Of a DNA stretch of 64,000 nt, positions 3,708-59,801 are shown one piece after another. The notes under the pieces are model-generated. The model saw only the letters and a list, made by a program, of their open reading frames with translations. It was not told where the DNA came from and searched no databases. The translations under genes and the position numbers were made by a program. Where the stretch lies: assembly GCA_027475525.1 (NCBI GenBank), contig JAMWFC010000049.1, positions 1,923,297 through 1,987,296 of the forward strand, given 5' to 3'. How positions within the stretch are numbered: position 1 is the first letter of the stretch; each line of letters begins with the position of its first letter. The DNA comes from Macrolepiota albuminosa. Lineage: Eukaryota > Basidiomycota > Agaricomycetes > Agaricales > Agaricaceae.

Positions 3708-4353
3708 TGTCATGACTCCTCCCCTCTGGACCCACCCCGGGACACCCCCGGAACACCATCCGGGACCCTCCCTCCGACCACACAGGGCACGCCCCGCCAT
3801 CACGACTACCGACACCGCCATCACGTGCATCAAGGACTGCCATCAGCCACCATCAGCCCTGATCAACGATCAGATCACACGATTCGCTTCCGGCCATCAC
3901 ACATCATGCATCACAGCCCCCTCCGCATCAACTGATCGCGTGCCCCACACGCGCAATCCAAGTATACAGTCCTGGCCTGCTACTCAATGACCCCTGGAAC
4001 CCATCCCAGACACCCCGGAACCCCGAGACCCGGTCCCGTAGTACTTATAGCATAGTTCCCTGTTGTATTCGTTAGTCTTGATATTACACTGTTACACTGT
4101 TTACATTTGCATTTCTTGGATTGTTGCATGCCCTCTGTTTGACTGGTACGCATTGACTGGCACGCTTGACTGGCATGCTTGAATACTCGCATGCTCTAAG
4201 ATTGGTACGCACTTCGCGACTTTAATTTACTAACTTGGTCTCGTCTTAGAACCTCCGGTTCACGACTCGACCCCCACCCTATCCTTAGCTACCCAAAACC
4301 CCTAAAACCCCCGGACCAAGTCCCCTCTCCTGGGATTACCCCTATCCACATCT
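3708..4353 (+). repeat. Truncated 5' LTR of copy 1
   Basis: It aligns with the complete 3' LTR (13246-14005) up to GGATTACCCCTATCC and then jumps directly into gag sequence at about 4354. The last ~115 bp of the LTR are missing. The proposed transcription-start motif AGTCTTGATATTA is still present at 4074-4086. A run of TTGACTGGCACGC-like units follows at about 4137-4180. Confidence 0.88.
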
Positions 4354-6907
4354 GCCCCATCTATCCACCCCTTCCGTACGAACCTCCGTATCTCCACTGC
4401 CACTGGGCCCCCGACCCATCCCTCGATGATCTGGGGCCCTTAGCCAGCTGGGCCCCTTTGCCCAACTTAGCCATGGCATGACCCGTGGAGGTCCCCTCGT
4501 ACCGAAGCATCCCCGGGGGCCTGCCGGAGACCCCACCAGTACCCAGTGGACCTCGCCCAATTTCCCCTAGCGAGGGCCCCTTTGCACCCACCCCCTACTA
4601 CGGTTACCAGCGCCCTGCCCCCCAACCCCAGGGTCCTCTCCACTACGACTACCCCCCTTGACACTACCCAACCGCCGCCCCACCCGCCCGGTCTCCCCCC
4701 TCACCGATGGGACAATGACAGCTCGAGGACTACGAACGACAATGGGACGAAGTGCTCCGCTCGCTCAGGATCTAGCCGGAGGACTTTGCGCAACGGGCAA
4801 GGGCGCTACTCACAGAACTCGGACACGACAACTTTGCAGGCACTCCAGAGGAATGGGCCCACTGCTTGGTCAAATTTGGGGATCGCCTCACGCGAGGAGA
4901 ACTCCTGGAGCAGACTATGGTAAAGTATAGGCGCAACATGATCCTCTGCGAAGAATTGCAACAACTGCTCGACAAAGTCCACGCGTCCCCTTCCCCCTGA
5001 CCCCTCAACAACCCCGCAGACCCAGGCCGCTCGATTCACATCTGGCGGGAATCCCTGGAACCGGCCCCGGCAGCCCCCGTGGTTCCCACTCTGGAGCAAC
5101 GACAATGGGAAGAGCGACAAAATGCCTCGGCCATACTACGGTCCCTTAACCTGACGGGAGGGCTATTCGATCAGCCCGCTGCCTGCACGGTAGGCTTGTC
5201 CACTCGCCGTAGGGCTAACTCCGTTTCTAGCACCTTTGAGACCTGGGGACAGCCTCAGAGACCCCTGGAACCCCTCCTGCGAACGGACAATGCCTGACCC
5301 CCGGCCCCAGCAAACCCTGGTAGACCCTGCGCGGACACCCCTAGCACAGACGATATGCTGTGCTACATCAACAAGCTCACGTGCGGCAACAACGAACAAC
5401 GCCCCGCGCCCATCCTGGTACCGCCCCCCACGTCAGCCCTGGCCCCTCCGGAACCCAACTTCTGCTGCGACCCCCCGCCCCACTTCGATCTGCGGAACCC
5501 TCCACAGCCTCCGATGCAAGCACGACCCTCTCGAGTTGAACGTCCCCCGCGCAACCCGGCACCCGACCCAGCACCTGGCCCCCCTCAGGTTGATCCAACA
5601 CCACCGAACCCTCCCCGACCACCTCCACCACCCCCAGCCAAATCTTGAGGACAACCCCCAGGCCCCCCACCTCCGCCACCCCCCGCATGGAGACCCGGGC
5701 CACCTTCCGGCAGGAACAAACCCCCCGGGTGTGGACCCCCAGGTGAGCCACCCGGAGGAGGCCCTCCAGGTGGGTGGGGTCCCGCCCTCGGTGCTTTTCC
5801 TCCACAAGGAGAGGGGGGTAATCATTACTACTACTACTACAATGCCGGCCCTCCCCCCTGCAACACTGCTGGACCGGACAATGCTCGCGATGCCCTCGCC
5901 CGCAAAGGACGTCTGGACATTCAGAAACCCGATGCGTTTATGGGCCAGGACCCCCGAAAATGGCATACATTCCTCATCCAATGTCTTAACATGTTTCAGG
6001 TGAAGCCGCTCACGTTTCAGGTTGACAGCTCCCGGGTGGCCTTTGCCACCTTGTACCTCCAGGGGATCGTCTTCGACCATTACACGGCCCTCATCTAGTT
6101 CGATCCCAACAACCCGGCACTCTCCCGCTGGCAAGCCTTTGTCGACGAGTTCTCCGGGAAATTCGGGATCTACGACACCGTGGCCGAAGCCGAGGACAAC
6201 CTCTTCAACCTCCAGATGCGCTCTGAAGAACGTTTCACTACCTTCATTGTACGTTTTGAGAAGGAAGCTTACAAGACAGGTTGGAACTATAGCGCCCTCT
6301 AGTACGCCCTCCGCCACGCCCTGCCGCAACGTATCAAGGACATCCTCTGACTCGCCCCGAAACAACCCTCCTACAACGGATACAAGGCCCTCATCATGCA
6401 GATCGACCAACGCTACTGGGAAGACCGCAGTGAGTACTCGAACTCCCGACCCCCCTGGAACCCTAGGGGAGGACCCCCATGGCCCTCCGGCGAGACCCCC
6501 AACCCCCAAATCTGAAACCCCGGTCCCCCCCACGTTCCCCGGCGGCTGACCCCCGGTGAGTTGCGGCCTGCCCAATACTAACCCCGGCTCAACGCCGCCG
6601 TGGCCGCCAACGAACCGGGCGATGCGCCAGACCCTGAGGAGCCCCCAGAAGACTCTGAAGACCCCGACTTTGCCAACGAGCGGGACGAAGAAGCCCTCCG
6701 GGCCAATCGGCTCTCGAAGAAGGGGCGATCCTGGGTCGAGGTTCTGAGGGATGTGCAGGAACAACAGAGGAGGGAGGATGTCTGTATACTCTGTGGTGAG
6801 AAAGACCATTTCATCTCCAAGTGCCCCCAATGACAGGTCATGGGACGTGCCACCTGGACCTTCGAAGGGGAGGACGCCACCTACGAGTATTCAGAAAACG
6901 ACCCGGC
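4354..6907 (+). pseudogene. gag: gag pseudogene of copy 1
   Basis: The sequence is collinear with copy 2 gag from about codon 32 onward, but the ATG is deleted and the frame is broken many times. Recognisable blocks include the capsid-like segment around 6060-6430 (DEFSGKFGIYDTVAEAE and RFEKEAYKTGWNYS) and the CCHC zinc knuckle CILCGEKDHFISKC at about 6783-6824. In-frame stops replace codons that are intact in copy 2: TAG for CAG near 6098, TAG near 6300 and TGA for CGA near 6349. The last stop, TGA just after the knuckle, is also a CGA in copy 2. Non-functional. Confidence 0.85.
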
Positions 6908-9900
6908 GATTTAGACCTGGAAGACGCCCTAAATCGCAGAATCGACCCTGACATCTTTTCCGCCCTGGTCTCACATCTTCGCTCCACGACACTCATACAG
7001 GACACCCTCACGGCTTACCTACCCTCCCACTCTTCACACTCCCTCCTCCTCAAAACCCGCCTCACCCCCTCTGGAACCCCCCTCGACACCCTCGTTGACA
7101 GTGGTGCCACCGACAACTTCATTGACAAAGCATGGTCTACCTTTGCCCCGGAACCTCCTCAGCGACTCCCGGTCCTGGTACAGCTCTGCCTCTTTGACGG
7201 AGATGCCTCTACGGCGGGGGACATCACTCACTTCGTGTGTATGCCCATTACTTTTGCCAACGGACAGACTCACACCCTCTGGATGTTGATAACCAAACTC
7301 CACCCTTCCACACCCCTGGTCCTAGGGCTCCCGTGGCTCTGAGACATCAATCCCCGCATCGATTGGCGACATCTCACCCTTTGCCTGACCCGGGACCTGA
7401 CGCCCGATGACCAGCAACTCCCCTTCAACATCCCCCACTCTCTGGACCCTACCCCAAAGGACGGGCCCCCATCACCCCCTGGACTCCAGTCCCGTTTGTC
7501 CCGATCCTTTGTCATCAATGCCAGGCTGGACGGCGCCCCAGGACCGATATCGGCCCTCATCGACAGCGGAGCCACCGGAGTTTTCATCAGCGACACTCTC
7601 GACCTCCCCCACGACTCCCTAGACCAGCCCCTCCACCTGCAACGCCTCGACGGCACCCCCTCCTCCTCCAGCCCCATCCAGAGGTCTCACTTGGGACGTG
7701 TGACCCTGGACAACAACTACAAGTTCACCTCCAACTTCCTGGTCACGCGACTCCACGAATCGACCCCAATGGTGCTGGGACTATCCTGGCTGCACGACAC
7801 GAACCCCGACATTGATTGGAGGATGCTCACCATGACCTTCCCGGGACCTGAAGACCACCCCTCGACCGCCATGCACCTCTGGGCCCTAGGAAACGACCCA
7901 ACGCCCGACACCCCCGGGACGACTGCCACGCCCCCCACGACCGTCCGAGACCGCAAGGCCCCTGATCAACCCCCAAACATTCCTTGGAACAAGTACAAAG
8001 GGCTAAACTACCCCGGCCGGTCTTGGACATGCGTCACACCCGCTCCGGCTGATGCATCCACGACCCCGATCAACCCAAACGCACTCGACATTAGGATCAT
8101 TGGGGCCGCCCCCTTCGCCCATCTCATGAAGGATGGAACTCCCACGTTTCAGCTACACACCTCGCCCTCTCTCCTGGAAGAACATCTACGAGGGGACGCT
8201 ATTCCCCCAGAAAAGAAAACCGAGGAGCAAATCCTCCGAGAAGTAGTTCCCCCGGAGTATCACGAGTTCGCTGACGTATTCTCTGAAGGAGACGCCAAGG
8301 AGATCCCCCCTCACCGCCCCTATGACCACACTATCGACCTTGAGGAAGAAGCCACCCACCCCCCCCTTTCGGCAAGGTATACAACATGTCGGAGGTCAAA
8401 CTTCGGGCCCTCAAGGACTACCTCGACAAAATGCTCGGCAAGGGATTCATCTGACCCTCCGCCTCCACCACCGGAGCCCCGGTTCTATTTTCCAAGAAGA
8501 AGGACGGCTCACTCTGACTCTGCGTCGACTACCGGGAACTCAATAAGATCACCAAGAAGAACCGCTACCCGCTCCCACTCATTGGCGATTTGGTCGATCG
8601 ACTCCGCAGTGCCAAGGTTTACATGAAGATCAACCTCCGCTTCAGTTACAACAACGTCCGCATCGCCCCAGGACACGAGTGGAAAACCGTGTTCTGCACG
8701 CGGTATGGTCTGTTTGAGTACCTTGTGATGCCTTTCAGAATGACTAACTCTCCTGCCACGTTCCAATACTTCATGAATGACATCTTCCACGACATGAGCG
8801 ACGTCTTCGTGATCGTCTACCTGGACGACATCCTCATCTATTCCAACTCGCAGGAGGACCACCAGAAACATGTCCGGCAAGTCCTTGAACGCCTCCTGGA
8901 GCACAACCTCCACGCCAAGCCCGAGAAGTGTTTATTCCACACAGGAGAAGTTGAGTATCTCGGCATCATAGTATCCCCAAATGGCGTTCGCATGGACCCC
9001 CACAAGGTCGAGGCCATTGTCAACTGGCCGCAGCCCCGGAACGTCAAGGAAGTACAATCTTTCTTGGGTTTCGCTAACTTCTACCGGAGGTTCATAGATA
9101 ACTACTCCGGTATCACAAAACCCCTCAACCGGCTCACGCGCAAGGACGTCGCCTGGAACTGGGACAGTAAGTGCCAGAGTGTCTTTAACCTGCTCAAGGA
9201 GGCTTTTACAGCCACCTCCATACTCTGGCACTACAATCCCACCCTCCTGATCATCCTAGAATGTGACACCTCCGACTACGCCATCGCCAGAATTCTCTCA
9301 CAGATGGGATTCGATGGTGGGGAGCCCTGGCCGGTCACCTTCTACACCCGGTCCATGATCGACGCTGAGCTCAACTACGACATCTATGACAAGAAGCTTC
9401 TCGCCATTGTCGAAGCCTTCAAGCAATGGCAGGCCTACCTCGAGAGAGCCTGGCACCGGATCCAGGTCTACTCGGATCACAATAACCTGCAGTACTTCAC
9501 CACGACCAAGCAACTTAGTCGACGGCAGGCTCAATGGTCTGAGATCCTCTTGGAGTACAACTTCACAATCCAGTACCACCCAGGACAGCTTGGAGCTAAG
9601 CCCGATGCCCTCATCCATCAACTGGACGTCTACCCCAAGAAGTCATTCGAGGCGGAATGCAATGTGTTCAATCATTGCGTGGTGATCCCTCCCAAACATC
9701 TAAATGCCTTACTGATCTTAAATGAGGAAGGGATCCTGAACCAGATCCACCGCTCCCCGAGACAAGTATTTCACCGACCATGACCCCTGCAACCCCCCCA
9801 ACGGAACTGACCGGGACCCCGCCTTTTCCTTGTCCCCCGACAAGAAACTCCTCCTCCGGGACGGCCGCATCTATGTCCTGGATCACGCCCGACTCCGCTG

Positions 9901-11153
9901 GAATACGTAAGACCCTCCAGCTTATCTCCCGGACTTACTTTTGGCCAGGGTTGAAGAAGGACATGACCCGCTACATTTGATCATGCGAACCCTGCCTCCG
10001 GGCCAAGGTCCCCCGACACTGACCATATGGACTCCTGAAACCCCTGCTGGTTGGGCGACGCCCCTGGTCCTCCATATCCCTGGACCACATCGTCAAATTC
10101 CCGGAATCTGAAGGGTTCAATGCCATTCTCGTTGTTGTGTGTAGGCTAACCAAACAGGGCATCTTCCTACCCTGCCACACCACGGATACCGCCCCGGACT
10201 TTGCCCGGCTGTTCCTCGAGCACGTCTTCGCCAAACATGGACTCCCGGACGACATCGTCTCCGACCGTGGCCCCCTCTTCGTGTCCAAGTTTTGGACTTC
10301 CCTGTGTAAGGCACTTGAAGTGAAGACTAACCTCTCTACTGCCTACCACCCCGAAACCGACGGCCAAACCAAAAGGGTCAACCAGTCTCTCGAGCAGTAC
10401 CTCCAACTGTACGTCAACTACTTGCAGGACAACTGGCGCGCCGAGCTCCCCCTGGCCGAGTTCACCTACAACAACACGCCGCACTCTGCCACCGGGGTAT
10501 CGCCCTTCTTTGCCAACAAGGGATATCACCCTCGACTGACGCTCTCGCTCCGGGACATCCCGTCACACGCTGCCCACGAGGTTGCCCGGGATCTCCAATC
10601 CCTTCACGAGTTTCTCCGGGAAGAGATCAACACCGCAAATCGGGCCTATGCGAAACATGCCGACCAGAAACGGGAAGACACCCCCGACTGGGCCTCCGGG
10701 ACAAAGATATGGTTAGATCGACACCACCTCCGCACCCACCGGCCCTCCCCAAAACTCGATCACAAATGCCTCGGCCCGTTCAAAATATTGAAGAAGGTCT
10801 CATCTCATGCCTACAAGATCGAGCTTCCCCCGGGACTAAAAGGTCTGCACCCAGTATTCCACATCCACCTCCTGGAACGACACCCCCCGGATCCCTTCCC
10901 CGAACGACGCCCCAAGCCCCCTCCCCCGGTCGAGGTCAAGGACGAGTACCACTACAAGGTTGAAGACATCCTCGACTCCTGGAATATTTGTGGACAACCC
11001 CACTTCCTCGTACGGTGGAAGGGATACAGCCTGGAAGACGACACTTGGGAACCGTGCCGAAACCTCGAAGGCGCCCTCGACAAACTCCGGGACTTCCAAC
11101 AACGGAACTCGGGAAACAACCTTCCCGGGCGCAGGACTCACAGACGGCAGTAG
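6821..11153 (+). pseudogene. pol: pol pseudogene of copy 1: double protease, RT, RNase H, integrase, chromodomain
   Basis: Domains in order are a first retropepsin (VDSGATDNF, about 7094), a second retropepsin (IDSGATGVF, about 7559), RT (VYLDDILIY near 8815), RNase H, integrase ([11 protein letters not shown] near 10345) and a chromodomain ending near 11090. Lesions relative to copy 2 include TGA at 8452-8454, 8515-8517, 9978-9980 and 10020-10022, each where copy 2 has CGA. There is a small insertion in a C-run near 8352. A deletion of about 56 bp near 9900 removes the first His of the integrase HHCC finger. RT to RNase H (8590-9783) and integrase core to chromodomain (10137-11153) survive as long open segments. 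Confidence 0.88.
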
Positions 11154-11441
11154 TGGGCGTAACCCCCGCCTCTGGGCTCAGTAGGGATTCAACTCCCATG
11201 TATACTTTGTGCTTTCCCTTTCTAGATCTTACTCTCTTTTAGTACCTTTTCATAGTAGTGTCCCGGAACCTGGGCAAGGTGCTCTTTTCAGTTTTCTTTC
11301 GCCCCTTACACCACCCCTTGCCCCGGGAGACCAAGTATATACATTTTACTATAAGTACAATATTTTACAAACCCACAGACGAGCAAAGACGAAAACAAAC
11401 AAAAACTACAGGCCCTTGCAACCTCCCTCCCCAGGCCAGCC

Positions 11442-13118
11442 TCAAAACCCCTCCCCCATCCCCTCCGGACCATGCTCCCGCAATACTTCCTCAGCCAACT
11501 GCTCCCAGGACGGGAGAGACTCACTCTTGTCCAGAACTCTCTCGAACCAGGAGCTGGGGGCGGGCACGTTCCTCTGCCGGTGTGCCGACACCATCCGCCC
11601 CAGCAAGTCGAGGCCCCGCTCTACCCCAGGAGTCGTCACCTCAGGGCGCTGCCCCTCCTGCAGCACCGCGAGTGCCACAGCTGCCCCGTCCAAGAGCAAG
11701 CGGTGCTCTCGGGCCCAGCCTGGGAATGTAAATGGGAAGTCGAGCCCGAGGATAAGGAGACTCACTTAATGAGGCCATATGAGCCACCACCATGTCCTGG
11801 CGCAGAGCCTCCACCAACCCCTCACTCCCTGCCCAAGCCTCGCCCTCAGAGCCTCTAGCTTGGCCTTCGCTTTCCCCCGGGCGACCCTGGCCTCCTCCAG
11901 GTCCCGGATCATTGCCTCCCGACCCTCCTCCAGATCCTGCCCGGCCGCCGCCTCCTCCCTCGCCCCCTCCCTGTGGCCCCCCTGCTCCCGCTCCTGCAGG
12001 GCCCTGACTTCGTCAGCTTGGAGTCCCCTGGACAGGGGGGAGAATGTTGCTGGGGATAGGCGCAGGAGGGAGACCAGAGATGGGATCTCCAGGGGCAAGT
12101 GCACCCTCTTGGAGGGCCCCAGGGAAGGGCTAGGCGACACCCGCCGTTTCCCCTTGTCAGGGCACCCCTCATGTTCCTCCCGCCCTGGGGCGCTAAACCA
12201 GGTCACCCAGCGCATGATCAAGACCATGGGCTGGCCCTGGCCGCCCACCTGGACAACCCCCCGTCCTCCCGCCCCACCCCCAGGGGCCTCCCCCGGCGCC
12301 TCCTCCTGAACCGCCGCTGCCCCTGTGACCCAATCCCGTGACCCAATCCCTCTCCTCCACCCCCATCCTCTGGATGATCCCTCCCAACAGCCAACCCTGC
12401 TCCTGCAAAACGCAATATGCCCTCCAGAGGGCCGAAACGGAACATCGCTCGTAATTGAGGCAACAGGCCTCGCACACGGAAGTGTCGTGCCAGGATGAGG
12501 TGGACGGGGCCTCGAACGAACACGTCACCAAGCGACGCGTGCAGTGAAGACACTAGGAAGGATTAGCTGTGGGACCAGAGGTACAAAGCTATTTACCGGC
12601 CTGTTGCTGATACATCAGGCATGGGGAGGCAGGCCCCAGGGCCTCACCAGCGCCCCCTCAAAGGCCTCCTGCGTCGCGCTGGCCCACGCAACGCACTGGG
12701 TCTCCGGGACCTCAGAAATGGCCCCCACCACCATCCCAGAGCGACGGAAATGAGGGGCGACCAGTCTAGGACGAGGAGGGGGAGGGAGACGGGGGGGACG
12801 CACAGTCATCCGTGCAAAAGTGGGCATGGGACGACTGGTACCTGACCCCAAAGGACCCCCGGGACCTGCACCAGGGACAGGCTCCGGGAGCCGGCTGGGA
12901 CCTGCCTTCGGGGCAGTAATGTTGTGTTGTTCTGAAAAGGGAAGGTCAGTAATGACAAGCGGGTGGCGCGGGAAGCACTCATGTTGTTGCGCAAGAGCTG
13001 CCATGTGCTTCCAGTCCAGGCGGGCTTGGTACCGCGCATCCCGGGCCTCCCAGGCCATGAGGGGCGCGACCTCGTTAGTTTGGGGGGGCGTCGGGGAATG
13101 CGTCGGCGTACGTGACAT
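11442..13118 (-). pseudogene. Antisense intron-containing zinc-cluster/coiled-coil gene inside copy 1 (degenerate)
   Basis: It is read on the minus strand from ATG at 13118 (MSRTPTHSPTPPQTNEV). Blocks in order are a Pro/Arg-rich segment (about 12890-12640), a cysteine cluster ending CEACCLNYERC (about 12480), a DKGKRR-type basic segment (about 12150), a coiled coil with EEGREAMIRDLEEARVARGK (about 11960-11850), and a C-terminal domain with REHRLLLDGAAVALAVL and ERGLDLLGRMVSAHR (about 11720-11460). Introns sit at the same places as in copy 2, but the first donor is ATGAGT instead of GTGAGT, so splicing is probably lost. The coiled-coil block, absent from copy 2, is kept here and shows the full architecture. 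The gene is collinear with the stand-alone gene at 20159-22279. A role in DNA binding is only an inference from the cysteines. Confidence 0.75.
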
Positions 13119-13245
13119 AGTTGAGTTTGATGGTAAAAAATTTTTTGATACGTGGCAGATCAGGTGCCGGATCCCACGATTGGACCCCAGCCCGAACCAC
13201 CGGCTACGCGCACCTCAGAGGGTCTCAGCACTGAAGGGGAGGTGA

Positions 13246-14005
13246 TGTCACGACCCCTCCTCTCCGGACCCACCCCGGGACACCCCCAGAACACCATCCA
13301 GGACCCTCCCTCCGACCCCACAGGGCACGCCCCACCATCACGACTACTGACACCGCCATCATGCGCATCAAGGACCGCCATCAGCCGCCATCAGCCCCGA
13401 TCAACAATCAGATCACGCGATTCGCTTCCGGCCATCATGCATCACGCATCACAGCCCTCTCCGCACCAACTGATTGTGCGCCCCACACATGCGATCCAAG
13501 TATACAGTCCCGGCCCGCTACTCAATGACCCCCGGAACCCATCCCAGACACCCTGGAACCCCAAGACCCGGTCCCATAGTACTTATAGCATAGTTCCCCG
13601 TTGTATTCGTTAGTCTTGATATTACACTGTTACACTGTTTACATTTGCATTTCTTGGATTGTTGCATGCCCTCTGTTTGACTGGTACACATTGACTGGCA
13701 CGCTTGACTGGCACGCTTGAATACTCACATGCTCTAAGATTGGTATGCACTTCGCGACTTTAATTTACTAACTTGGTCTCATCTTAGAACCTCCGGTTCA
13801 CGACTCGACCCCCATCCTATCCTTAGCTACCCAAAACCCCTAAAACCCCTGGACCAAGTCCCCTCTCCCAGGATTACCCCTGTCCACGTCTTGAACCCCG
13901 GAGTCCTAGCCCCGGAGTTCCAGACACCTGAGTATCCGTAGGTCAAGTCTGCATTGTAAGGGCAATTGCTTTCCTGGAAAGCCCCCGACTCAGCGGAACC
14001 TGACA
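13246..14005 (+). repeat. 3' LTR of copy 1, complete (760 bp)
   Basis: It starts TGTCACGACCCC and ends CCTGACA, and is preceded by the purine-rich tract GAAGGGGAGGTGA (polypurine tract). It is followed by the AACAT duplication at 14006-14010. It has the same sub-motifs as the other family LTRs: a TATA-like CTTATAG, then AGTCTTGATATTA near 13612, then TTGACTGGCACGC-type repeats. Confidence 0.93.
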
Positions 14006-31891: not shown

Positions 31892-31960
31892 TGCAACGCC
31901 CGGGTTTGGGCCTGGGCAAGAAACTGGGGCGGCAGAAGGGTTTCTTGCCCGGCCGGCAGG

Positions 31961-33266: not shown

Positions 33267-33574
33267 TCTCTGCCGGGCTTATCTAAGCAACCGGAGTACC
33301 ATCACCCGTCACCCCACTCAATCGATTGCAATTACTTTTCTCCGAAGACAATTCAGCTATTACACACCCAATAAACTAATTTCTAACACCGACCAGCATG
33401 CAACTGCACACAAACACTGATACTTCGTGACTTGACCGCAGACCTCAACTTGCTTGTATGGGCCGTTGCTAGCACGGCGTGACCGAGATCTACACTTGAT
33501 CAAAAGGTATTGGCCTGCGGCGGACCGAGGTCTACAGCATAGGGTGTTGAATCCGTAATGTGGCAGTGTTAATG
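33267..33574. repeat. Right 308-bp direct terminal repeat of the DIRS-type element
   Basis: It is nearly identical to 28888-29195 in the same orientation. The two differences I see are CCCCACTC versus CCCCGCTC and GGACCGAGG versus GGACTGAGG. Confidence 0.93.
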
Positions 33575-34685: not shown

Positions 34686-35434
34686 TGTCACAACCCCTCC
34701 CCTCCGGGCCCACCCCGGGACACCCCCGGAACACCCTCCGGGACCCTCCCTCCGACCCCACAGGACACGCCCCGCCATCACGACCGCTGACACCGCCATC
34801 ACGCGCATCAAGGACCGCCATCAGCCGTCACCAGCCCCGATCAACGATCAGATCACGCGACTCGTGCCGGCCATCACGCATCACGCATCACGGCTCCATC
34901 CGCGCCAATTGATCGCGTGCCCCACACGCGCGATCCCGGTATACAGCCCCTGCCGCTACTCAATAACCCCCGGAACCCATCCCAGACATCCCGGAACCCC
35001 GAGACCCGGCCCCGTAGTACTTATAGTGTAGCTCCCTGTTGTATTCGGTAGTCTTGATATTACATACTTTGCATAACTGTTACTTGGATATTGCGTGCCC
35101 TCTTGTTTGACTGGTACGCCTCGTTTGGTATGCTTCGACTGGCACGCCTTAGTATTCGCGTGCTCTAAGCTTTGGTACGCACTTCGCGACTCTTAACTTA
35201 CTAACTTGGTCTCGTCTTAGAACCTCCGGTTCACGACTCGACCCCCTCTAACTCCCAGCCACTCTCATCCAAAACCCCCGGACTCTGGTCTCCTCTCCCG
35301 GGATTACCCCTGTCCCCGTCTTGAACCCCGGAATCCTAGCCCCGGAGTTCCAGACACCCGAGTATCCGTAGATCAAGTCCGCACCGTAAGGGCGTCGCTT
35401 TCCCGGAAAGCCCCCGATTCAGCGGAACCTGACA
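34686..35434 (+). repeat. 5' LTR of copy 2 (749 bp)
   Basis: From TGTCACAACCCC to CCTGACA; it pairs with 44386-45133. Inside are repeated CATCACGCATCACG-like units (about 34872) and TTTGACTGGTACGC/TTCGACTGGCACGC units (about 35105-35145). Confidence 0.94.
35017..35062 (+). promoter_or_regulatory. Predicted TATA-like box and transcription start of the chromovirus
   Basis: GTACTTATAGTG (about 35017-35028) is TATA-like. About 29 nt downstream begins AGTCTTGATATTA (35050-35062), whose exact reverse complement forms the primer site right after the LTR. If transcription starts at 35050, the first 13 nt of the RNA can fold back to prime cDNA synthesis. Pairing stops precisely at 35050, which supports that base as the RNA 5' end. 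Confidence 0.65.
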
Positions 35435-35447
35435 TAATATCAAGACT
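35435..35447 (+). promoter_or_regulatory. Primer-binding site complementary to the element's own RNA 5' end
   Basis: TAATATCAAGACT begins at the first base after the 5' LTR and is the perfect reverse complement of 35050-35062. I see no tRNA 3'-end complement (no TGG start). This matches the self-priming layout known for Tf1-type elements. Confidence 0.78.
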
Positions 35448-35467
35448 CTTTCCTTACACCGTTCTTG

Positions 35468-38253
35468 ATGGCTACGTATACTCACACTTACTACCCCACC
35501 GGGTACCAGACCGACCCTTACGGACGCCTGGTACCCGACCACTACTCCACGCAGACCCCCCGCCCCGCCTACCCACCTCTCCTGTACGAACCCCCATATC
35601 TCCACCGCCACTGGGCCCCCGACCCGTCCCTCTACGACCTGGGACCCTCAGCCAGCTGGGCCCCTCCACCCAATTTAGCCATGGCGCGACCCGTGGAGGT
35701 CCCCTCGTACCGGAGCATCCCCGGGGGCCTGCCGGAGACCCCACCTGTACCCAGTGGACCTCGCCCGATTCCCCCCAGCGAGGGCCCCTTTGCACCCACC
35801 CCCTACTACGGTTACCAGCGCCCCGTCCCCCAACCCCAAGGACCCCCCTACCCCGACTATCCCTCCCGTCATTACCCGGCCGCCGCTCCACTCGCTCGAA
35901 CCCCTCCATCGCCAATGGGACGACGACGCCTCGAGGAGTACGAACAGCAACGGGACGAGGTACTCCGCTCCCTCAGGATCTCACCAGAGGACTTCGCGCA
36001 ACGGACCAGGACGCTGCTCGTGGAATTCGGACACGACGACTTCGAAGGCACTCCGGAGGAATGGGCTCACTGCCTGGTTGAATTTGGGGATCGCCTCACG
36101 CGAGGAGAACTCCCGGAGCAAACCATGGTAAAGTATAGGTGCAACACAATCCTCCGGGAAGAATTACAGCAACTGCTTGACGAAGTCCACGCGTCCCCTT
36201 CCCCTCGGCCCATCAACGACCCCGCGGACCCAGGTCGCTCGATTCACATTCGACGGGAACCCCCGGAACCGGTCCCAGCAGTCCCGGCAGCCCCCACGGT
36301 CCCCACTCCGGAGCAACGACAACGGGAAGAACGGCAGAATGCCTCAGCCATATTACGGTCCCTCAACCCGGCTGGAGGCCTCTTCGATCAACCCGCGGCC
36401 TGCACGGTAGGCTTGTCAACTCGCCGCAGGGCTAACTCCGTCCCTAGTACCTTTGAGACCTGGGGACAGCCTCAAAGACCCCTGGAACCCCTCCCACGAA
36501 CAGACAACGCCCCACCCCCGGTCCCAGCAAACCCTGGCAGACCCCGCACGGACACCCCTAGCACGGACAACACGTGCTACATCGACGAGCTTACGCGTGG
36601 AAACAACGAACCGCGTCCCGCACCCGTGCCCGTCCCGGTACCGCCCCCTATGTCAGCCCCGGTCCCTCCGGAACGCAACTTCCGCCGCAATCCGCCACCC
36701 CACTTCGACCTACGAAACCCCCCGCGACCCCCGATACAAGCACGACCCTCCTGGGTTGAACGTCCCATCCGCCACCCCACTTCGACCTACGAAACCCCCC
36801 GCGACCCCCGATACAAGCACGACCCTCCCGGGTTGAACGTCCCCCGCGCAACCCAGTACCCGACCCAGCACCCGACCCCCCTCCGCCCGACCCGACACCG
36901 CCGAACCCTCCCCGACCACCTCCGCCACCCCCAGCTGAACCTCGAGGACGACCCCCAGGCCCTCCACCTCCGCCACTCCCTGCGTGGAGACCCGGGCCCC
37001 CTCCTGGCAGGAACGAACCCCCTTGGGACAACGGACCTCCCGGGCGTGGACCCCCAGGTGAGCCACCCGGAGGAGGACCTCCCGGCGGGTGGGGTCCCGC
37101 CCTTGGTGCTTTTCCTCCTCAAGGAGGAGGGGGTAATCATTACTACTATTATTACAATGCTGGCCCCCCTCCCCGTAACGCTGCCGGACCGGACGACGCT
37201 CGCGACGCCCTCGCCCGCGAAGGACGACTGGACATCCAAAAGCCTGATGCTTTCACGGGCCGGGACCCCCGAAAATGGCGTACCTTCCTCACTCAGTGTC
37301 TCAATACATTCCAGGCAAAGCCGCTCACGTTTCAGGTTGACAGCTCCCAGGTGGCCTTTGCCGCATCATACCTTCAGGGGATCGCCTTCGATCACTACAC
37401 GGCCCTTATCCAGTTCGACCCCAACAATCCGGCACTCGCTCGCTGGCAGGCCTTCGTCGACGAGTTCTCTGGGAAGTTCGGAATCTACGACACCGTGGCC
37501 GAGGCCGAGGACAACCTCTTCAATCTCCGGATGCGCTCGGAAGAACGTTTCACCACCTTTATCGTACGTTTTGAGAAGGAAGCTTACAAAACAGGTTGGA
37601 ACTACAGCGCCCTCCGGTACGCCCTCCGCCGCGCCCTGCCACAACGCATCAAGGACGTCCTCCGACTTGCCCCGAAACAACCCTCCTACGACGGATACAA
37701 GGCCCTCGTCATGCAGATTGACCAACGCTACTGGGAAGACCGCAGCGAGTATTCGAATTCCCGACCCCCCTGGAACCCTAGAGGAGGACCCCCTTGGCCC
37801 TCCGGCGAAACTCCCAACCCCCAAGGTCGAAACCCCGGTCCCCCCGCGTTCCCTGGCGGCCGACCCCCGGTGAGTCGCGGCCCGCCCAATGCTAACCCCG
37901 GCAGCGGCACCCGCCCCCAGGCCCAGCTCAACGCCGCCGTGGCCACCCAAGACCCGGGCGACGCGCCAAGCCCCGTGGAACCCCCGGGAGACCCCGAAGA
38001 CTTCGACTTCGACGACAAACGGGACGAGGAGGCCCTCCGAGCCAACCGGCTTCAAAAGAAGGGACGACCCTGGATCGAAGTCCCGACGGATGTGCAGGAA
38101 CGATGGAGAAGGGAGGGTGTCTGCATACTCTGTGGTGAGAAAGATCATTTCATCTCCGAGTGCCCCAAACGACAGGTCATGGGACGTGCCACCTGGACCT
38201 TCGAAGGGGAGGACGCCACCTACGAGTATTTGGAAAACGACCCGGCGATTTAG
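35468..38253 (+). CDS. gag: gag of copy 2 (frame interrupted by a 77-bp duplication)
   Basis: Starts at ATG 35468 (MATYTHTYYPTGYQTDPYG), only 33 bp after the LTR. The N-terminal ~400 residues are very Pro-rich, with RRRLEEYEQQRDEVLRSL as a short helical block. The capsid-like domain (about 37230-37750) contains ALIQFDPNNPALARWQAF, DEFSGKFGIYDTVAEAE and RFEKEAYKTGWNYSALR. A CCHC knuckle, [14 protein letters not shown], lies at 38122-38163. The first part is in frame 2 and the second in frame 1. The 77-bp tandem duplication at 36690-36843 accounts exactly for the shift, and copy 1 has only one unit there. Without the duplication gag would be about 903 residues. It overlaps pol by ~93 nt in a -1 relation. 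Confidence 0.88.
36690..36843. repeat. 77-bp tandem duplication inside gag of copy 2
   Basis: TCCGCCACCCCACTTCG begins at 36691 and again at 36768, an offset of 77 bp. The two units differ at about one internal base (CTCCTGGG versus CTCCCGGG). Copy 1 has a single unit at the same place. Confidence 0.92.
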
Positions 38254-41200
38254 ACCCGGAAGACGCCCTAAATCGCGGAATCGACCCCGACGTCTTCTCC
38301 GCCCCGGTCTCACACCTTTGCTCTACGGCACTCATACAGGACACCCTCACGGCTTACCTACCCTCCCACTCTTCGCACTCCCTCCTCCTCAAAACCCGCC
38401 TCACCCCCTCCGGAACTCCCCTCAACACCCTCGTCGACAGCGGCGCCACCGACAACTTCATCGACGAAGCATGGTCTACCCTCGCCCCGGAACCCGCCCA
38501 GCGACTCCCGGTCCCGGTACGACTCTGCCTCTTCGACGGCGACGCCTCTACGGTGGGGGACATCACTCATTTTGTGCGTATGCCCGTTACCTTCGCCAAC
38601 GGACAGACTCACACCCTCCGGATGTTGATAACCAAACTCCACCCTTCCGCACCCCTGGTCCTAGGGCTCCCGTGGCTCCGGGACACTAACCCCCGCATCG
38701 ATTGGCGACACCTCACCCTTCGCCTGACCCGGGACCCGACCCCCGACGACCAGCAACTTCCCTTCGACATCCCCCACCCCTCCAACCCTACCCCGAAGGA
38801 CGGGCCTCCACCACCCCCCGGACTCCAGTCCCGTTCATCCCGATCCTTCGTCATCAATGCCAGGCTGGACGGCGCCCCAGGACCAGTCTCGGCCCTCATC
38901 GACAGCGGAGCCACCGGAGTATTCATCAGCGACGCTCTCGACCTCCCCCACGACCCCCTCGACCAGCCCCTCCGCCTGCAACGCCTCGACGGCACCCCCT
39001 CCTCCTCCGGCCCCATCCAAAGGTCTCACTTGGGACGCGTGACCCTGGACAACAACTACGAGTTCACTTCCGACTTCCTGGTCACGCGACTTCACGAATC
39101 GACCCCGATGGTGCTGGGACTACCCTGGCTGCGCGACACGAACCCCGACATCGATTGGAGGACGCTCACCATGACCTTCCCGGGACCCGAAGACCACCCC
39201 TCGACCGCCGTGCACCTCCGGGCTCTAGGAAGCGACCCGACGCCCGACATCCCCGGAACGACTGCCGCGCCCCCCACGCATGCACCACCCCCGCCCATCC
39301 GAGACCGCAAGGCCCCCGATCGACCCCCAAACATTCCTCGGAACAAGTACAAGGGGCCGAACTACTCCTGCCGGTCTCAGACACGCGTCACACCCGCTCC
39401 GGCCGATGATTCCGCAACACCGATCGATCCAAGTGCACTCGACATTAGGATCATTGGGGCCGCCCCCTTCGCCCGCCTCATGAGGGATGGGACTCCCACG
39501 TTTCAGCTGCACACCTCGCCTTCTCTCCCGGAAGAACACCTACGAGGGGACGCTATTCCCCCGGAACCGAAAACCGAGGAGCAAATCCTCTGAGAAGTAG
39601 TTCCCCCGGAGTATCACGAGTTCGCTGACGTATTCTCCGAAGGAGACGCCAAGGAGATCCCCCCTCACCGTCCCTATGATCACACCATCAACCTCGAGGA
39701 AGGAGCCACCCCCCCTTTCGGCAAGGTCTACAACATGTCGGAGGTCGAACTCCGGGCTCTCAAGGACTACCTCGATGAAATGCTCGGTAAGGGATTCATC
39801 CGACCCTCCGCCTCCGCCGCCGGAGCCCCGGTTCTATTCGCCAAGAAGAAGGACGGCTCGCTCCGACTCTGTGTCGACTACCAGGGACTCAATAAGATCA
39901 CCAAGAAGAACCGCTACCCGCTCCCGCTCATTGGCGATCTGGTCGATCGACTCCGCAGTGCCAAGGTTTATACAAAGATTGACCTCCGCTCCGGTTACAA
40001 CAACGTCCGCATCGCCCCGGGACATGAGTGGAAAACCGCGTTCCGCATGCGGTATGGTCTGTTTGAGTACCTTGTGATGCCTTTTGGAATGACTAACTCC
40101 CCCGCCACGTTCCAATACTTCATGAACGACATCTTCCACAACATGAGTGACGTCTTCGTGATTGTCTACCTGGACGACATCCTCATTTATTCCGACTCAC
40201 CGGAGGATCACCAGAAGCATGTCCGGCAAGTCCTTGAGCGCCTCCGGAAGCACAACCTCCACGCCAAGCCCGAGAAGTGTTCATTCCATACGGAAGAGGT
40301 TGAGTATCTTGGCGTCATAGTATCCCCGAATGGCGTTCGCATGGACCCCCACAAGGTCGAGGCCATCGTCAACTGGCCGCAGCCCCGGAACGTCAAGGAA
40401 GTACAGTCCTTCCTGGGTTTCGCTAACTTCTACCGGAGGTTTATAGACAACTACTCCGGGATCACGAAACCCCTCAACCGGCTCACGCGCAAGGACATCG
40501 CCTGGAACTGGGACAGTAAGTGCCAGAGCGTCTTTAACTTGCTCAAGGAGGCTTTCACAGTCGCCCCGGTACTCCGGCACTACGACCCGGCCCTCCCGAT
40601 CATCCTGGAATGTGATGCGTCCGACTACGCCATCGCCGGGATCCTCTCACAGATGGAGCCTGACGGTGGGGAGCCCCGGCCAGTCGCTTTCTACACCCGG
40701 TCCATGATCGACGCCGAGCTCAACTACGACATTTACGACAAGGAACTCCTCGCCATCGTCGAAGCCTTCAAGCAATGGCGGGCCTACCTCGAGGGAGCCC
40801 GGCACCGGATCCAGGTCTATTCGGATCATAATAACCTGCAGTACTTCACCACGACCAAGCAACTCAGTCGACGGCAGGCCCGATGGTCCGAGATCCTCTC
40901 GGAATACGACTTCACGATCCAATACCGCCCGGGACGACTTGGCGCCAAGCCCGACGCCCTCACCCGCCGTCCGGACGTCTACCCCAAGAAGTCGTTCGAG
41001 GCGGAACGTAATGCGTTCAATCATCGCGTGGTGATCCCTCCCGAACATTTGAATGCCTTACTGATCTTAAACAAGGAAGGGACCCTGAGTCAGATTCGCC
41101 GCGCCCCCCGAGACAAGTACTTCACCGATTACGACCCCCGCAACCCCCCTGATGGAACTGACCGGGACCCCGCCTTCTCCCTGTCTCCCGACGAAAAACT

Positions 41201-42500
41201 CCTCCTCCGGGACGGCCGCATCTACGTCCCGGATCACGCCCAACTTTGCTACGACGTCCTCCGTCAACACCACGACCACAAGCTCCGGGGACATCCTGGA
41301 ATACGTAAGACCCTCCAGCTCATCTCCCGGACTTACTTTTGGCCAGGATTGAAGAAGGACGTAACCCGTTACATTCGATCATGCGAGCCCTGCCTCCGGG
41401 CCAAGGTCCCCCGACACCGACTGTACGGACTCCTGAAACCCCTGCCGGTCGGACGACGCCCCTGGTCCTCAATATCTCTGGACCACATCGTCGAGCTCCC
41501 GGAATCTGAAGGGTTCGATGCCATTCTCATCGTTGTGTGCAGGCTAACCAAACAGGGCATCTTCCTACCCTGCCACACCACGGATACCGCCCCGGACTTC
41601 GCCCGGCTGTTCCTCGAGCACGTCTTCGCCAAGCATGGTCTCCCGGACGACATCGTCTCCGACCGGGGCCCCCTCTTCGTGTCCAAGTTTTGGACTTCCC
41701 TGTGTAAGGCACTTGAAGTAAAGACTAACCTCTCTACTGCCTACCACCCCGAAACCGACGGCCAAACCGAAAGGGTCAACCAGTCCCTTGAGCAGTACCT
41801 CCGGCTGTACGTCAACTACTTGCAGGACGACTGGCGCGCCGAGCTCCCCCTGGCCGAGTTCACCTACAACAACACGCCACACTCTGCTACCGGGGTATCG
41901 CCCTTCTTTGCCAACAAGGGATACCACCCTCGACTGACGCTCTCGCTCCGGGACATCCCGTCGCACGCCGCCCACGAGGTCGCCCGGGATCTCCAATCCC
42001 TTCACGAGTTCCTCCGGGAAGAGATTGACACCGCGAACCGGGCCTACGTGAAACACGCCGACCGGAAACGGGAAGACACCCCCGACTGGGCCCCCGGGAC
42101 AAAGGTATGGTTAGATCGACGACACCTCCGCACCCGCCGGCCCTCCCCAAAACTCGATCACAAGCGTCTCGGCCCGTTCAAAATATTGAAGAAGGTCTCA
42201 TCCCACGCCTACAAAATTGAGCTCCCCCCGGGACTAAAAGGTCTGCACCCGGTATTCCACGTCCGCCTCCTGGAACGACACCCCCCGGATCCTTTCTCCG
42301 AACGGCGCCCTGAGCCCCCTCCCCCGGTCGAGGTCGAGGACGAGTACCACTACGAAGTTGAAGACATCCTCGACTCCCGGAACATTCGTGGACGACCCCA
42401 CTTCCTCGTACGGTGGAAGGGATACGGCCCGGAAGACGACACTTGGGAACCACGCCGAAACCTCGAAGGCGCCCTCGACAAACTCCGGGATTTCCAATAG
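38160..42500 (+). CDS. pol: pol of copy 2: tandem protease, RT, RNase H, integrase, chromodomain (one in-frame TGA)
   Basis: One frame runs from the gag overlap to the stop at 42498-42500, broken only by TGA at 39591-39593 (EEQIL*EVVPPEY). Protease 1 has [12 protein letters not shown] (38436) and [17 protein letters not shown]. Protease 2 has [12 protein letters not shown] (38901) and [56 protein letters not shown] (residues 145-148 counted from 39735). RNase [28 protein letters not shown]. Integrase: a His/Cys finger ending SCEPCLRAK, then [14 protein letters not shown] and [14 protein letters not shown] (D, D, E). C-terminal chromodomain: [35 protein letters not shown] chromodomain usually targets integration to modified chromatin. 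Confidence 0.93.
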
Positions 42501-42785
42501 CGGCGCCTGGGAAGCGATCCTCCCGGGCGCAGGACTCACAGACGGCAGTAGTGGGCGTAACCCCCGCCTCTGGGCTCAGTAGGGATTCAACTCCCACGTA
42601 TACTTTCTGCCTCCCCTTCTCAGGACTTACTCCTTTTCTAGTACCTTTTATCATATGTAGCGCCCGGGAACCGAAGCAGGGTCTCCCTCCAGCTTTTCCG
42701 CCGCATTACTCACACGATTCCTCTCTTACCTACTCCGAAGGACCGAGTATATACATTTTTTCTATAAGTACACTATTTTACAGTT

Positions 42786-44256
42786 CTAAGCCGGGACAAG
42801 AAACAAAAAAAACGCCACCCCTAACGCTGGGGCCCCGGATCGTGACTCCCCTCGCCCTCCCTCCCCCTTGGCCACCCCCTGGAAACCCTCCCCCACCCCC
42901 TCTGGACCATGCTCCCGCCACACTTCCTCGGCCAGGAGCTCCCAAGACGGGAGGGGCTCACCCTCATCCAGCACTCGCTCGAACCAAGACCCGGGGGCAG
43001 GTATGTTCCTCCGCCGGTGGGCAACCACTAACCGCCCCAAGAGGTCAAGCCCGCGCTCCACCCCGGGGGTCGTCACCTCCGGGCGCTGACCCTCCTGTAG
43101 CGAGGCCAGTGCCGCGGCAACCCCATCCAGGAGCAGGCGATGCTCCCGGGCCCAGCCTGGAGACGTTAGCAGACGAAGTAATTCGGAGACAGGGGACTCA
43201 CTGGGAGAGGCGTGGCGGGGAAACCGGGGGCGGGGTCTCGGTGGGCAGACGCGCCCTCTTTGACGGCCCTGGGGAAGGGCTTGGCGACGCCCGCCGCTTC
43301 CCCTTGTCAGGGCGCCCCCCGCGCCCCTCGCGGCTCCCCCCGGCCCGGGTCGCTCGGCGCGTGATGAGGACCACGGGCCGGCCCCGGCCCCCCACCCGAA
43401 TGGCGCCCCCGCTCCCCGACCCCCTTGGACCCGCAGCGGCCACCTCCCCCACCGGCTCCGTCGCCTCCCCCACCGGCTCCGCGACCCAATCTCGCTCCTC
43501 GACCCCCATCCTCCGGGTGACCCCCCCCAGCGGCCACCCCTGCTCCCAGGAGACGCAGCGCGCCCTCCACAGCGCCGACACGGAACACCTCTCGTGGTTG
43601 AGGCGGCATGCCTCACACACGGACGTGTCCCGGCGGGACGAGGGGCCCGGGACCTCGAACAGGCAGGGGACCATTCGTCGAGCGCAGTGGAGGCACTGCG
43701 CCAAAGTCAGCAACGAGACCCGAGGTAAGGAAGCACTCACCGGTCCATTATTCACGCACCAGGCGTGGGTGGGTAGACCCCGGGGCCTCTCCAGGGCCTC
43801 CCCAAATAACTCCTGCGTCGCGTCCGCCCACGCAACGCGCTGACCCTCCGGGACTTTGGATACGGCCCCCACCGGCATCCCAGAACGACGGAAGCGGGGG
43901 GCAGGTAGCCTGGGGCGGGGAGGGGGTTGAGGGCGGGGAGGGCGGACTGTCATCCGCGCAAAGGTAGGCGCGGGACGACTCGGGCGGGCCTCCGGGACGA
44001 CGCTGGGACCCGCATTGGGAGCAGGCTCCGGGTGCCGGCTGGGACCCGCGATAGGATTGCTGTGTTGTTCTGAAATAGGAAGGTCAGTGGGATAGGCGGA
44101 CGATGCGGGAAGACACTCACGTTGCTGGGCGAGCTCCGCCACGCGCTCCCGGTCGAGGCGGGCTCGGTATCGCGCGTCCCGGGCTTCCCAAGCCATGAGG
44201 GGCGCGACCTCGTTAGTTTGTGGGGGCGTCGGGGAATGCGTCGGCGTACGCGACAT
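42786..44256 (-). CDS. Antisense spliced zinc-cluster gene carried by copy 2
   Basis: It lies between pol and the 3' LTR, on the opposite strand. Exon 1 (44256-44121) is MSRTPTHSPTPPQTNEVAPL to ELAQQ; intron 44120-44070 (GTGAGT...TTTCAG). Exon 2 (44069-43741) is Pro/Arg-rich and ends NNGP; intron 43740-43696 (GTGAGT...GCGCAG). Exon 3 (43695-43202) opens CLHCARRMVPC, continues to CEACRLNHERC (paired CX2CX6C) and ends near DKGKRRASPSPSPGPSKRAR; intron 43201-43157 (GTGAGT...CTAAC...CCAG). Exon 4 (43156 to about 42786) carries REHRLLLDGVAAAL and ERGLDLLGRLVVAHRRRN. Relative to copy 1 about 280 bp (the coiled coil) are deleted at the end of exon 3, putting exons 3 and 4 out of frame. The cysteine pattern resembles a Zn2Cys6 cluster with a longer linker (15 residues). 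Function unknown. Confidence 0.75.
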
Positions 44257-44372
44257 GGTTGAGTTTGATGGTAAAAAATTTTTTTCGATACGTGGCAAGT
44301 CAGGTGCCGGATCCCACGGTTGGACCCCGGTCCGAACCCCCGGCTACGCGCGCCTCGGAGGGTCTCGGCGCT

Positions 44373-44385
44373 GAAGGGGGGGTGA
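44373..44385 (+). promoter_or_regulatory. Polypurine tract of copy 2
   Basis: The purine run GAAGGGGGGGTGA lies immediately before the 3' LTR start TGTCA. Copy 1 has GAAGGGGAGGTGA at the same place. Confidence 0.75.
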
Positions 44386-45133
44386 TGTCACGACCCCTCC
44401 CCTCCGGGCCCACCCCGGGACACCCCCGGAACACCCTCCGGGACCCTCCCTCCGACCCCACAGGACACGCCCCGCCATCACGACCGCTGACACTGCCATC
44501 ATGCGCATCAAGGACCGCCATCAGCCGTCACCAGCCCCGATCAACGATCAGATCACGCGACTCGTGCCGGCCATCATGCATCACGCATCATGGCTCCATC
44601 CGCGCCAATTGATCGCGCGCCCCACACGCGCGATTCCGGTATACAGCCCCTGCCGCTACTCAATAACCCCCGGAACCCATCCCAGACATCCCGGAACCCC
44701 GAGACCCGGCCCCGTAGTACTTATAGTGTAGCTCCCTGTTGTATTCGGTAGTCTTGATATTACATACTTTGCATAACTGTTACTTGGATATTGCGTGCCC
44801 TCTGTTTGACTGGTACGCCTCGTTTGGTACGCTTCGACTGGCACGCCTTAGTATTCGCGTGCTCTAAGCTTTGGTATGCACTTCGCGACTCTTAACTTAC
44901 TAACTTGGTCTCGTCTTAGAACCTCCGGTTCACGACTCGACCCCCTCTAACTCCCAGCCACTCTCACCCAAAACCCCCGGACTCTAGTCCCCTCTCCCGG
45001 GATTACCCCTGTCCTCGTCTTGAACCCCGGAGTCCTAGCCCCGGAGTTCCAGACACCCGAGTATCCGTAGATCAAGTCCGCACCGTAAGGGCGTCGCTTT
45101 CCCGGAAAGCCCCCGATTCAGCGGAACCTGACA
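44386..45133 (+). repeat. 3' LTR of copy 2 (748 bp)
   Basis: It matches 34686-35434 apart from scattered transitions and one single-base indel (CTCTTGTTTGAC versus CTCTGTTTGAC). It is followed by ATCAG. It lies ~130 bp upstream of the antisense gene start, so it could also serve as that gene's promoter region. Confidence 0.94.
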
Positions 45134-59657: not shown

Positions 59658-59801
59658 GGCCCCAACCCCAGTCTTCGACGCATCGCAAATGAGCCAGATG
59701 GGCTCATTGATGCGTGGGTCAATTGGCCAAACATGGCCTCAACCCCAGTCTTTGACGCATCACAAATGAGCCAGATGGGCTCGTCGATGCGTGGGTCAAT
59801 T
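59648..59801. repeat. 77-bp tandem duplication in RNase H of the second gypsy element
   Basis: GGCCAAACATGGCC starts at 59648 and again at 59725. The units differ at about five positions, so they are not identical copies. Confidence 0.92.

What the first reader, a model, noticed from the sequence alone, without database searches (positions are those of the whole stretch)
42786..44256. Chromovirus carries an intron-containing gene on its antisense strand
Between pol and the 3' LTR copy 2 has a four-exon minus-strand gene with three canonical 45-51-nt introns (GTGAGT donors, CAG acceptors). The same gene, in the same place and orientation, is in copy 1 (11442-13118). Only an antisense position lets introns survive retrotransposition, because they are not spliced from the genomic RNA. 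Antisense ORFs are known in some plant gypsy elements; a spliced, zinc-cluster-type one in a fungal chromovirus is new to me.
Basis: partly seen in the sequence, partly recalled or inferred. Interest (0 to 1): 0.9.

Follow-up and report, generated by a model that had tools for sequence, protein, structure and literature searches.

The report
Spliced antisense gene in fungal retrotransposons
Many copies of a fungal jumping element carry, written backwards between their main genes and their end repeat, a real protein gene with three introns that looks like a nuclear DNA-binding regulator; in this particular copy the gene is broken.

Summary
The minus-strand gene is real and a family trait. I compared 57 loci of the same 100-Mb genome. 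Introns 1-3 vary in length (49-53, 43-48, 44-48 nt in the first 49 loci), almost always with GT...CTRAY...AG. In 13 of 13 intact models tested, exons 1-3 keep the same remainders mod 3 (1, 2, 1). Retaining intron 1, 2 or 3 destroys the C terminus in 6, 7 and 7 of them. dN/dS among eight representatives is 0.19-0.43 (median 0.26); pN/pS is 0.34 in frame, 1.5-1.9 in four other frames and 0.52 in a mirror frame. The gene lies beside 50 of 91 scored pol copies by listing; of the other 41 I fetched 8, and 8 of 8 have it.

The protein (522-564 aa) has a Zn2Cys6-spaced cysteine cluster, a bipartite-NLS-like stretch and a conserved C terminus. I infer an HBZ-like nuclear regulator of the LTR; transcription and function are untested. 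New: the gene is an island of old alleles between conserved pol and LTR.

The parts
34686..45133 (+). Copy 2, Ty3/gypsy chromovirus with both LTRs (10,448 bp), 5-bp target duplication ATCAG on both sides
   Evidence: LTR match 98.0% over 749 nt and flanks
34686..35434 (+). 5' LTR of copy 2
44386..45133 (+). 3' LTR of copy 2 (an antisense promoter may lie here or in the leader; inference)
36760..38253 (+). gag ORF (stop to stop): Retrotrans_gag, zinc knuckle
38139..39593 (+). ORF with aspartyl protease; ends at an in-frame stop before RT, whereas the open frame holding integrase is 1473-1477 aa long in several relatives
39594..42500 (+). pol: RT, RNase H, integrase, chromodomain
44257..44385 (-). 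Conserved leader upstream of the antisense ATG (candidate antisense promoter/5' UTR); on the + strand its end holds a polypurine tract (about 44373-44382, by eye)
   Evidence: 200 nt upstream of the ATG, which include the leader: 90% mean and 76% minimum identity over 13 loci, introns 61-75% mean over 8; leader alone 88-98% in 8 pairs
44121..44256 (-). Antisense gene exon 1 (136 nt in all 13 intact models)
44070..44120 (-). Intron 1 (51 nt; 49-53 in the family)
43741..44069 (-). Exon 2 (329 nt here)
43696..43740 (-). Intron 2 (45 nt; 43-48 in the family)
43202..43695 (-). Exon 3, cut short by a 293-nt deletion whose 9-nt breakpoint overlap is at 43203-43211
43585..43695 (-). Six-cysteine cluster C-x2-C-x6-C-x15-C-x2-C-x6-C at the start of exon 3
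   Evidence: 35 of 36 distinct stop-free pieces keep all six Cys
43249..43305 (-). Bipartite-NLS-like stretch KGKRRASPSPSPGPSKRAR
   Evidence: read by eye; no NLS program run
43157..43201 (-). Intron 3 (45 nt; 44-48 in the family)
42821..43156 (-). Exon 4 with the conserved C-terminal domain (out of frame with exon 3 in this copy)
3708..14005 (+). Copy 1 of the element, target duplication AACAT; LTRs 93.0% alike over the first 646 nt
11442..13118 (-).

Best explanation
Chromoviruses of this fungus carry an accessory gene on their antisense strand between pol and the 3' LTR. SHOWN by comparison: it has four exons and three spliceosomal-type introns, it is maintained by purifying selection, and it accompanies the family. 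INFERRED: a promoter in the conserved 129-nt leader and/or the 3' LTR drives an antisense transcript; the host spliceosome removes the introns; the protein enters the nucleus through its basic bipartite stretch, pairs through a coiled coil and binds DNA through a Zn2Cys6-like cluster to regulate LTR transcription of its own family. That would be the role HBZ plays in HTLV-1, with an unrelated DNA-binding module. Because the introns are antisense, genomic RNA never loses them, and only RNA from the antisense promoter can make the protein.
For: Gene reality: intron lengths vary while exons 1-3 keep remainders 1, 2, 1 in 13 of 13 models; unspliced frames are as short as 56 aa against 546 aa spliced. 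Donor is GT in 46/49, 47/47 and 44/44 measured introns 1-3; CTRAY branch sequence in 49/49, 46/47 and 42/44 (boundaries were found with exon anchors, so these counts are not independent of the model). dN/dS median 0.26 over 28 pairs; pN/pS 0.34 in frame against 1.62 and 1.74 in the other gene-strand frames. Prevalence: 50 of 91 pol copies by listing and 8 of 8 sampled from the remaining 41. Regulator reading: six Cys kept in 35 of 36 pieces; Zn_clus 22.2 bits against cut-off 21 for one 70-aa piece; weak fold matches to the Leu3 DNA-binding domain and 1cld; basic stretch and C terminus conserved. Analogy: HBZ and APH proteins (PMC10186651 passages), nuclear GENE23 of Grande (PMC7264820).
Against: No transcript evidence at all. 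No homologue in two protein searches. Zn_clus is below cut-off for the full L048 protein (16.7) and the L012 piece (16.1), and absent for the unspliced L022 ORF at E<=1; only 5 of 27 exon-3 pieces reach E 0.01. Fold models have low confidence (pLDDT 69.6 and 66.1) and no significant match; the top Foldseek row for the cluster is a spliceosome chain. One mirror frame on the opposite strand has pN/pS 0.52. No NLS or coiled-coil program was run. Nothing here shows DNA binding or a target.
Confidence: 0.55

Rival explanations
1. A real antisense accessory protein, but not a transcription regulator: for example it helps nuclear entry of the integration complex or steers integration, with the cysteine cluster as a protein- or RNA-binding module.
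For: Zinc-cluster profile and fold matches are weak; the C-terminal piece is conserved (83% mean column identity) and has no significant match. PMC7264820 section 7 raises nuclear entry as a role for such proteins.
Against: Cysteine spacing is that of Zn2Cys6 proteins (spacing recalled); 4 of 7 weak Foldseek rows are the Leu3 Zn2Cys6 domain, though the top row is not.
Confidence: 0.25
2. A host zinc-cluster gene captured in antisense and now carried as cargo.
For: Introns are what a captured genomic fragment would have.
Against: It accompanies divergent subfamilies; no homologue was found in two protein searches. A free host copy in this genome was not excluded, because listings are truncated.
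Confidence: 0.08
3. The antisense RNA itself is the functional product (dsRNA/siRNA control) and the protein is incidental.
For: Antisense RNA control is described for other elements (PMC7264820 passages; PMC7175516 passages on Ty1 and Tf2).
Against: Purifying selection in one frame and frame-preserving introns need a protein. Both roles may coexist.
Confidence: 0.07
4. Chance: a GC-rich antisense ORF mirroring other constraints, with accidental GT-AG pairs.
For: The window holds many long chance ORFs; the opposite strand of the gene has pN/pS 0.52 in one frame, which shares third positions with the gene.
Against: as above; the region lies outside pol, so no overlapping known gene accounts for the pattern.
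Confidence: 0.02

Closest known systems
aORF-3R genes of plant gypsy elements (Grande gene23, RIRE2, Retand TRP28, PvRetro13)
   Same: Antisense gene between pol and 3' LTR, kept in most copies, some nuclear or predicted DNA-binding (PMC7264820 passages and sections 5-7; PMC11963269 passages)
   Different: Here three introns and a cysteine cluster. Neither paper's main text contains the word intron; no Pfam family reached its cut-off in the two full proteins scanned, PF04195 (Retand TRP28) not among the rows
brtn of Boty-like elements, Botrytis cinerea (Zhao et al. 2011)
   Same: Antisense gene in a fungal gypsy element with a chromodomain (PMC7264820; PMC4227169 and PMC8365987 passages)
   Different: The paper is not held; only its title and second-hand mentions were seen, so introns, domains and homology could not be compared
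HTLV-1 hbz and HTLV-2/3/4 APH genes
   Same: Spliced antisense transcript from the 3' end, mostly nuclear regulator of the virus's own LTR (PMC10186651 passages)
   Different: HBZ has a bZIP domain, which was not found here; this gene has three introns inside its coding part and lies in a retrotransposon
Antisense homing-endonuclease genes with spliceosomal introns in rDNA group I introns (PMC9548176)
   Same: An antisense gene of a mobile element broken up by spliceosomal introns (title and start of abstract seen in the listing)
   Different: Group I intron host, not a retroelement; not read further
Fungal Zn2Cys6 transcription factors (Pfam Zn_clus, Leu3)
   Same: C-x2-C-x6-C-x15-C-x2-C-x6-C spacing, weak profile and fold match
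   Different: Below Pfam cut-off in the full proteins tested; no other domain of that class found; lies within a mobile element

Membership tests
Ty3/gypsy chromovirus (element) | RT, RNase H, integrase and C-terminal chromodomain in pol | tested here: met
   RVT_1, RT_RNaseH, Integrase_H2C2, Chromo (4.7e-13); rve below its cut-off (25.6 vs 32.6)
Ty3/gypsy chromovirus (element) | LTRs, 5-bp target duplication, polypurine tract | tested here: met
aORF-3R (antisense gene between pol and 3' LTR) | Position and antisense orientation | tested here: met
aORF-3R (antisense gene between pol and 3' LTR) | Present in most family copies | tested here: met
   50 of 91 by listing plus 8 of 8 fetched from the other 41: at least 58 of 91; 33 not examined
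aORF-3R (antisense gene between pol and 3' LTR) | Antisense transcription | not testable with these tools
   no RNA data for this genome
Zn2Cys6 DNA-binding domain (PF00172) | Six-cysteine spacing | tested here: met
   (spacing rule recalled)
Zn2Cys6 DNA-binding domain (PF00172) | Profile match above gathering score | tested here: inconclusive
   22.2 bits vs 21 for one 70-aa piece of L048; 16.7 for the whole L048 protein and 16.1 for the L012 piece; 5 of 27 pieces at E<=0.01
Zn2Cys6 DNA-binding domain (PF00172) | Fold | tested here: inconclusive
Zn2Cys6 DNA-binding domain (PF00172) | Binds two zinc ions and DNA | not testable with these tools
   needs bench work
HBZ (antisense bZIP factor) | bZIP domain | tested here: not met
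   no bZIP family among Pfam rows of the L022 ORF (E up to 1) or the spliced L048 protein (E up to 10)
HBZ (antisense bZIP factor) | Spliced antisense transcript from 3' LTR | not testable with these tools
   introns shown by comparison only
Retand-type TRP28 antisense protein (PF04195) | TRP28 domain | tested here: not met
   not among the Pfam rows
Boty brtn | Sequence homology to brtn | not tested
   no brtn sequence or paper held

The most novel reading that the evidence does not exclude
The antisense gene is an exchangeable regulatory cassette. Divergent allele types of a Zn2Cys6-like regulator are kept for long times and swapped between nearly identical pol/LTR backbones, so that each allele type may control its own copies (a self/non-self control among competing subfamilies), with splicing restricting its production to antisense RNA.
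Probability: 0.2. Interest if true: 0.85.

Novelty: new variant of a known kind. Interest (0 to 1): 0.6.

Why it matters
The function of antisense genes in LTR retrotransposons is stated as not known in a 2020 review (PMC7264820, section 5). Here is one with three introns, clear purifying selection, a DNA-binding-like module and several divergent natural allele types in one genome. That makes a regulator-of-own-LTR hypothesis directly testable and offers a non-viral parallel to HBZ. It also warns annotators: reading the gene unspliced would lose the C terminus in 11 of the 13 intact models, and in the other two (L022, L010) would add intron-encoded residues.

Tried and rejected
Chance ORF: rejected. 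Intact gene in copy 2: rejected. Gene absent from the pol copies without a listed hit: rejected for the 8 of 41 sampled. Protein homologues: searches with the unspliced L022 ORF (7992 candidates scored, none at E 0.001) and with residues 103-228 of the spliced L012 protein (129 candidates, none at E 10) found nothing. The pol search (best 120 of 7970 listed) reached Termitomyces sp. T112 (up to 80% identity) and Lentinula, so fungal proteins are in that database; genes masked as repeats may still be missing. Viral contigs: none for gene or pol. PDB sequence searches: nothing convincing (best E 0.012, a ribosomal L29 chain over 25 residues). No Rfam match in the window at gathering score. C-terminal fold model: 14 Foldseek rows, none at E<=0.001.

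Papers: ten searches (open-licence library only). No title or abstract start listed there describes a spliced antisense gene in a fungal LTR element; lists were cut at 5-20 rows, one search matched 586 papers with 15 shown, and searches returned nothing. This is not proof that none is in print.

Results against the reading: opposite-strand frame 1 has pN/pS 0.52; the zinc profile is mostly below cut-off; 2 of 49 intron-1 donors read AT and 1 reads GC, one intron-2 acceptor is CAA, and 2 loci for intron 2 and 5 for intron 3 could not be measured. The eight dN/dS representatives and the 13 splice models were chosen because they are intact.

Full report
What was checked. The window lies in a 100.1-Mb genome of 129 contigs. 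Copy 2 is an LTR element at 34686-45133: LTRs 98.0% alike over 749 nt and target duplications ATCAG. Its pol has RT, RNase H, integrase and chromodomain. Copy 1 (3708-14005, AACAT) is older by its LTRs (93.0% over the first 646 nt). Among named proteins listed, the highest pol identities are to Termitomyces sp. T112 (up to 80%); Lentinula reaches 71%. The host is therefore probably an agaricomycete (inference).

The gene in the family. The gene region of copy 2 matched 40 scored places (of 678 candidates), and the protein of one open copy gave 88 matches from 77 scored places. I took 39 places as 5.6-kb stretches, plus copies 1 and 2, plus eight further representatives, 49 loci in all. In 37 of the 39, pol lies downstream of the gene on the opposite strand; L019 and L020 are the exceptions, and L020 holds a run of N. 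Intron 1 measures 51 nt in 41 loci, 52 in 3, 50 in 2, 49 in 2 and 53 in 1. Intron 2 measures 45 in 38, 48 in 3, 44 in 2, 47 in 2, 46 in 1 and 43 in 1, with 2 not measurable. Intron 3 measures 45 in 21, 46 in 18, 44 in 3 and 48 in 2, with 5 not measurable. Boundaries were located with short exon anchors.

The decisive test. In 13 intact models the lengths of exons 1-3 always leave remainders 1, 2, 1 when divided by 3, while introns 1 and 3 take all three remainders and intron 2 takes two. Keeping intron 1, 2 or 3 destroys the conserved C terminus in 6, 7 and 7 of the 13. In L048 the unspliced frame is 56 aa and the spliced one 546 aa; in L058 56 and 538; in L060 56 and 551. These 13 were chosen because they are intact. 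By my count, 21 of 57 loci read through to the conserved end (17 of 49 and 4 of 8). The others carry stops, frame changes or missing parts, or could not be modelled; one, L014, was mis-anchored by a repeat of its start and was left uncounted. Copies L022/L023 and L010 are open even unspliced, which is why splicing could not be judged from single copies.

Selection. Over 28 pairs of eight representatives, dN/dS runs from 0.19 to 0.43, median 0.26. Differences by codon position are 1937, 1783 and 4663. Pooled pN/pS is 0.34 in the gene frame and 1.62 and 1.74 in the other two frames of that strand; on the opposite strand it is 1.54, 0.52 and 1.90. The 0.52 frame shares third positions with the gene. 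By segment, pooled pN/pS is lowest in the middle segment and the cysteine cluster (0.23 each), then the C terminus (0.29), N terminus (0.32), basic stretch (0.36), coil (0.52) and linker (0.70).

Prevalence. A search with integrase-chromodomain scored 91 pol copies at 94-100% identity (of 4350 candidates). 50 have an antisense gene hit listed or 55 within 2.6 kb. Gene lists are truncated, so I fetched 8 of the 41 others: all 8 carry gene sequence, of more divergent alleles, and 4 of the 8 are intact after splicing. 33 of 91 remain unexamined.

State of the window copies. Relative to L010 and L022, copy 2 lacks 293 nt at the end of exon 3, with 9 nt shared by both edges. The splice donor survives, but the frame does not. 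Copy 2 also has an in-frame stop before RT, where several relatives have a longer frame.

An unexpected pattern. Between the same copies, synonymous divergence in the antisense gene averages 0.50, against 0.15 in the last 130 codons of pol (about 80-114 synonymous sites); for L012 against L050 it is 0.63 against 0.04. The three pairs within one allele type (L041, L046, L054) go the other way: gene 0.10-0.13, pol 0.12-0.22. Along the stretches (8 pairs), the LTR part is 86-95% alike and the leader 88-98%; the last 1.2 kb of pol is 92-98% in the six pairs without L010, whose contig has a gap there. For the four pairs of L012 or L022 with L041 or L046, exons 2-4 fall to 77-81%, exon 1 to 79-90% and introns to 65-69%. 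Within the gene, L012 and L010 share exon 2 completely but exon 4 only at 76%. The gene is therefore an island of old alleles, reshuffled between and within copies, probably by template switching during reverse transcription (inference). A locally raised mutation rate is not excluded.

Mechanism. Shown: structure, selection, prevalence. Inferred: antisense promoter, splicing in the cell, nuclear import, DNA binding, LTR control. The HBZ parallel (PMC10186651, passages read) is one of way of working, not of membership: no bZIP was found.

Relation to known work. [quoted passage not shown] PMC11963269, passages; PMC8365987 and PMC4227169, passages; Zhao et al. 2011 seen as a citation only). The main texts of PMC7264820 and PMC11963269 contain no occurrence of 'intron'. 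A mussel gypsy element has a 67-aa antisense ORF (PMC10974842, passages). Antisense genes with spliceosomal introns are reported for another mobile element, rDNA group I introns (PMC9548176, listing only). My ten paper searches listed no spliced antisense gene in a fungal LTR element, within an open-licence library only.

Noticed in passing
L012, L022, L041, L046, L048-L050, L054: The antisense gene is an island of high synonymous divergence (mean dS 0.50) beside pol (0.15) and conserved LTR and leader, with mosaic exons between allele types.
   Followed up: partly
window 36690-36843: A 77-nt stretch of copy 2's gag region is duplicated in tandem (99% alike).
   Followed up: no
window 28888-33566, minus strand: Another retroelement, about 4.7 kb, with direct terminal repeats 99% alike over 300 nt and an RT ORF at 29198-31960.
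   Followed up: no
window 57516-61572, minus strand: A further gypsy-type element with RT, RNase H and integrase split over several ORFs; whether it has an antisense gene was not checked.
   Followed up: no
window 47111-47130: An exact copy of the first 20 nt of the element's LTR 2 kb beyond copy 2; perhaps a solo or broken LTR.
   Followed up: no
L013 (G000:C114:605366 and 605946): Exon 4 of the antisense gene is listed twice, 580 nt apart, suggesting a tandem duplication of the gene's end.
   Followed up: no
L026-L036, L045 and others: Divergent copies look rich in C-to-T and G-to-A changes in the part of the alignment that was shown, as expected of methylation or RIP-like decay; not quantified.
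   Followed up: no
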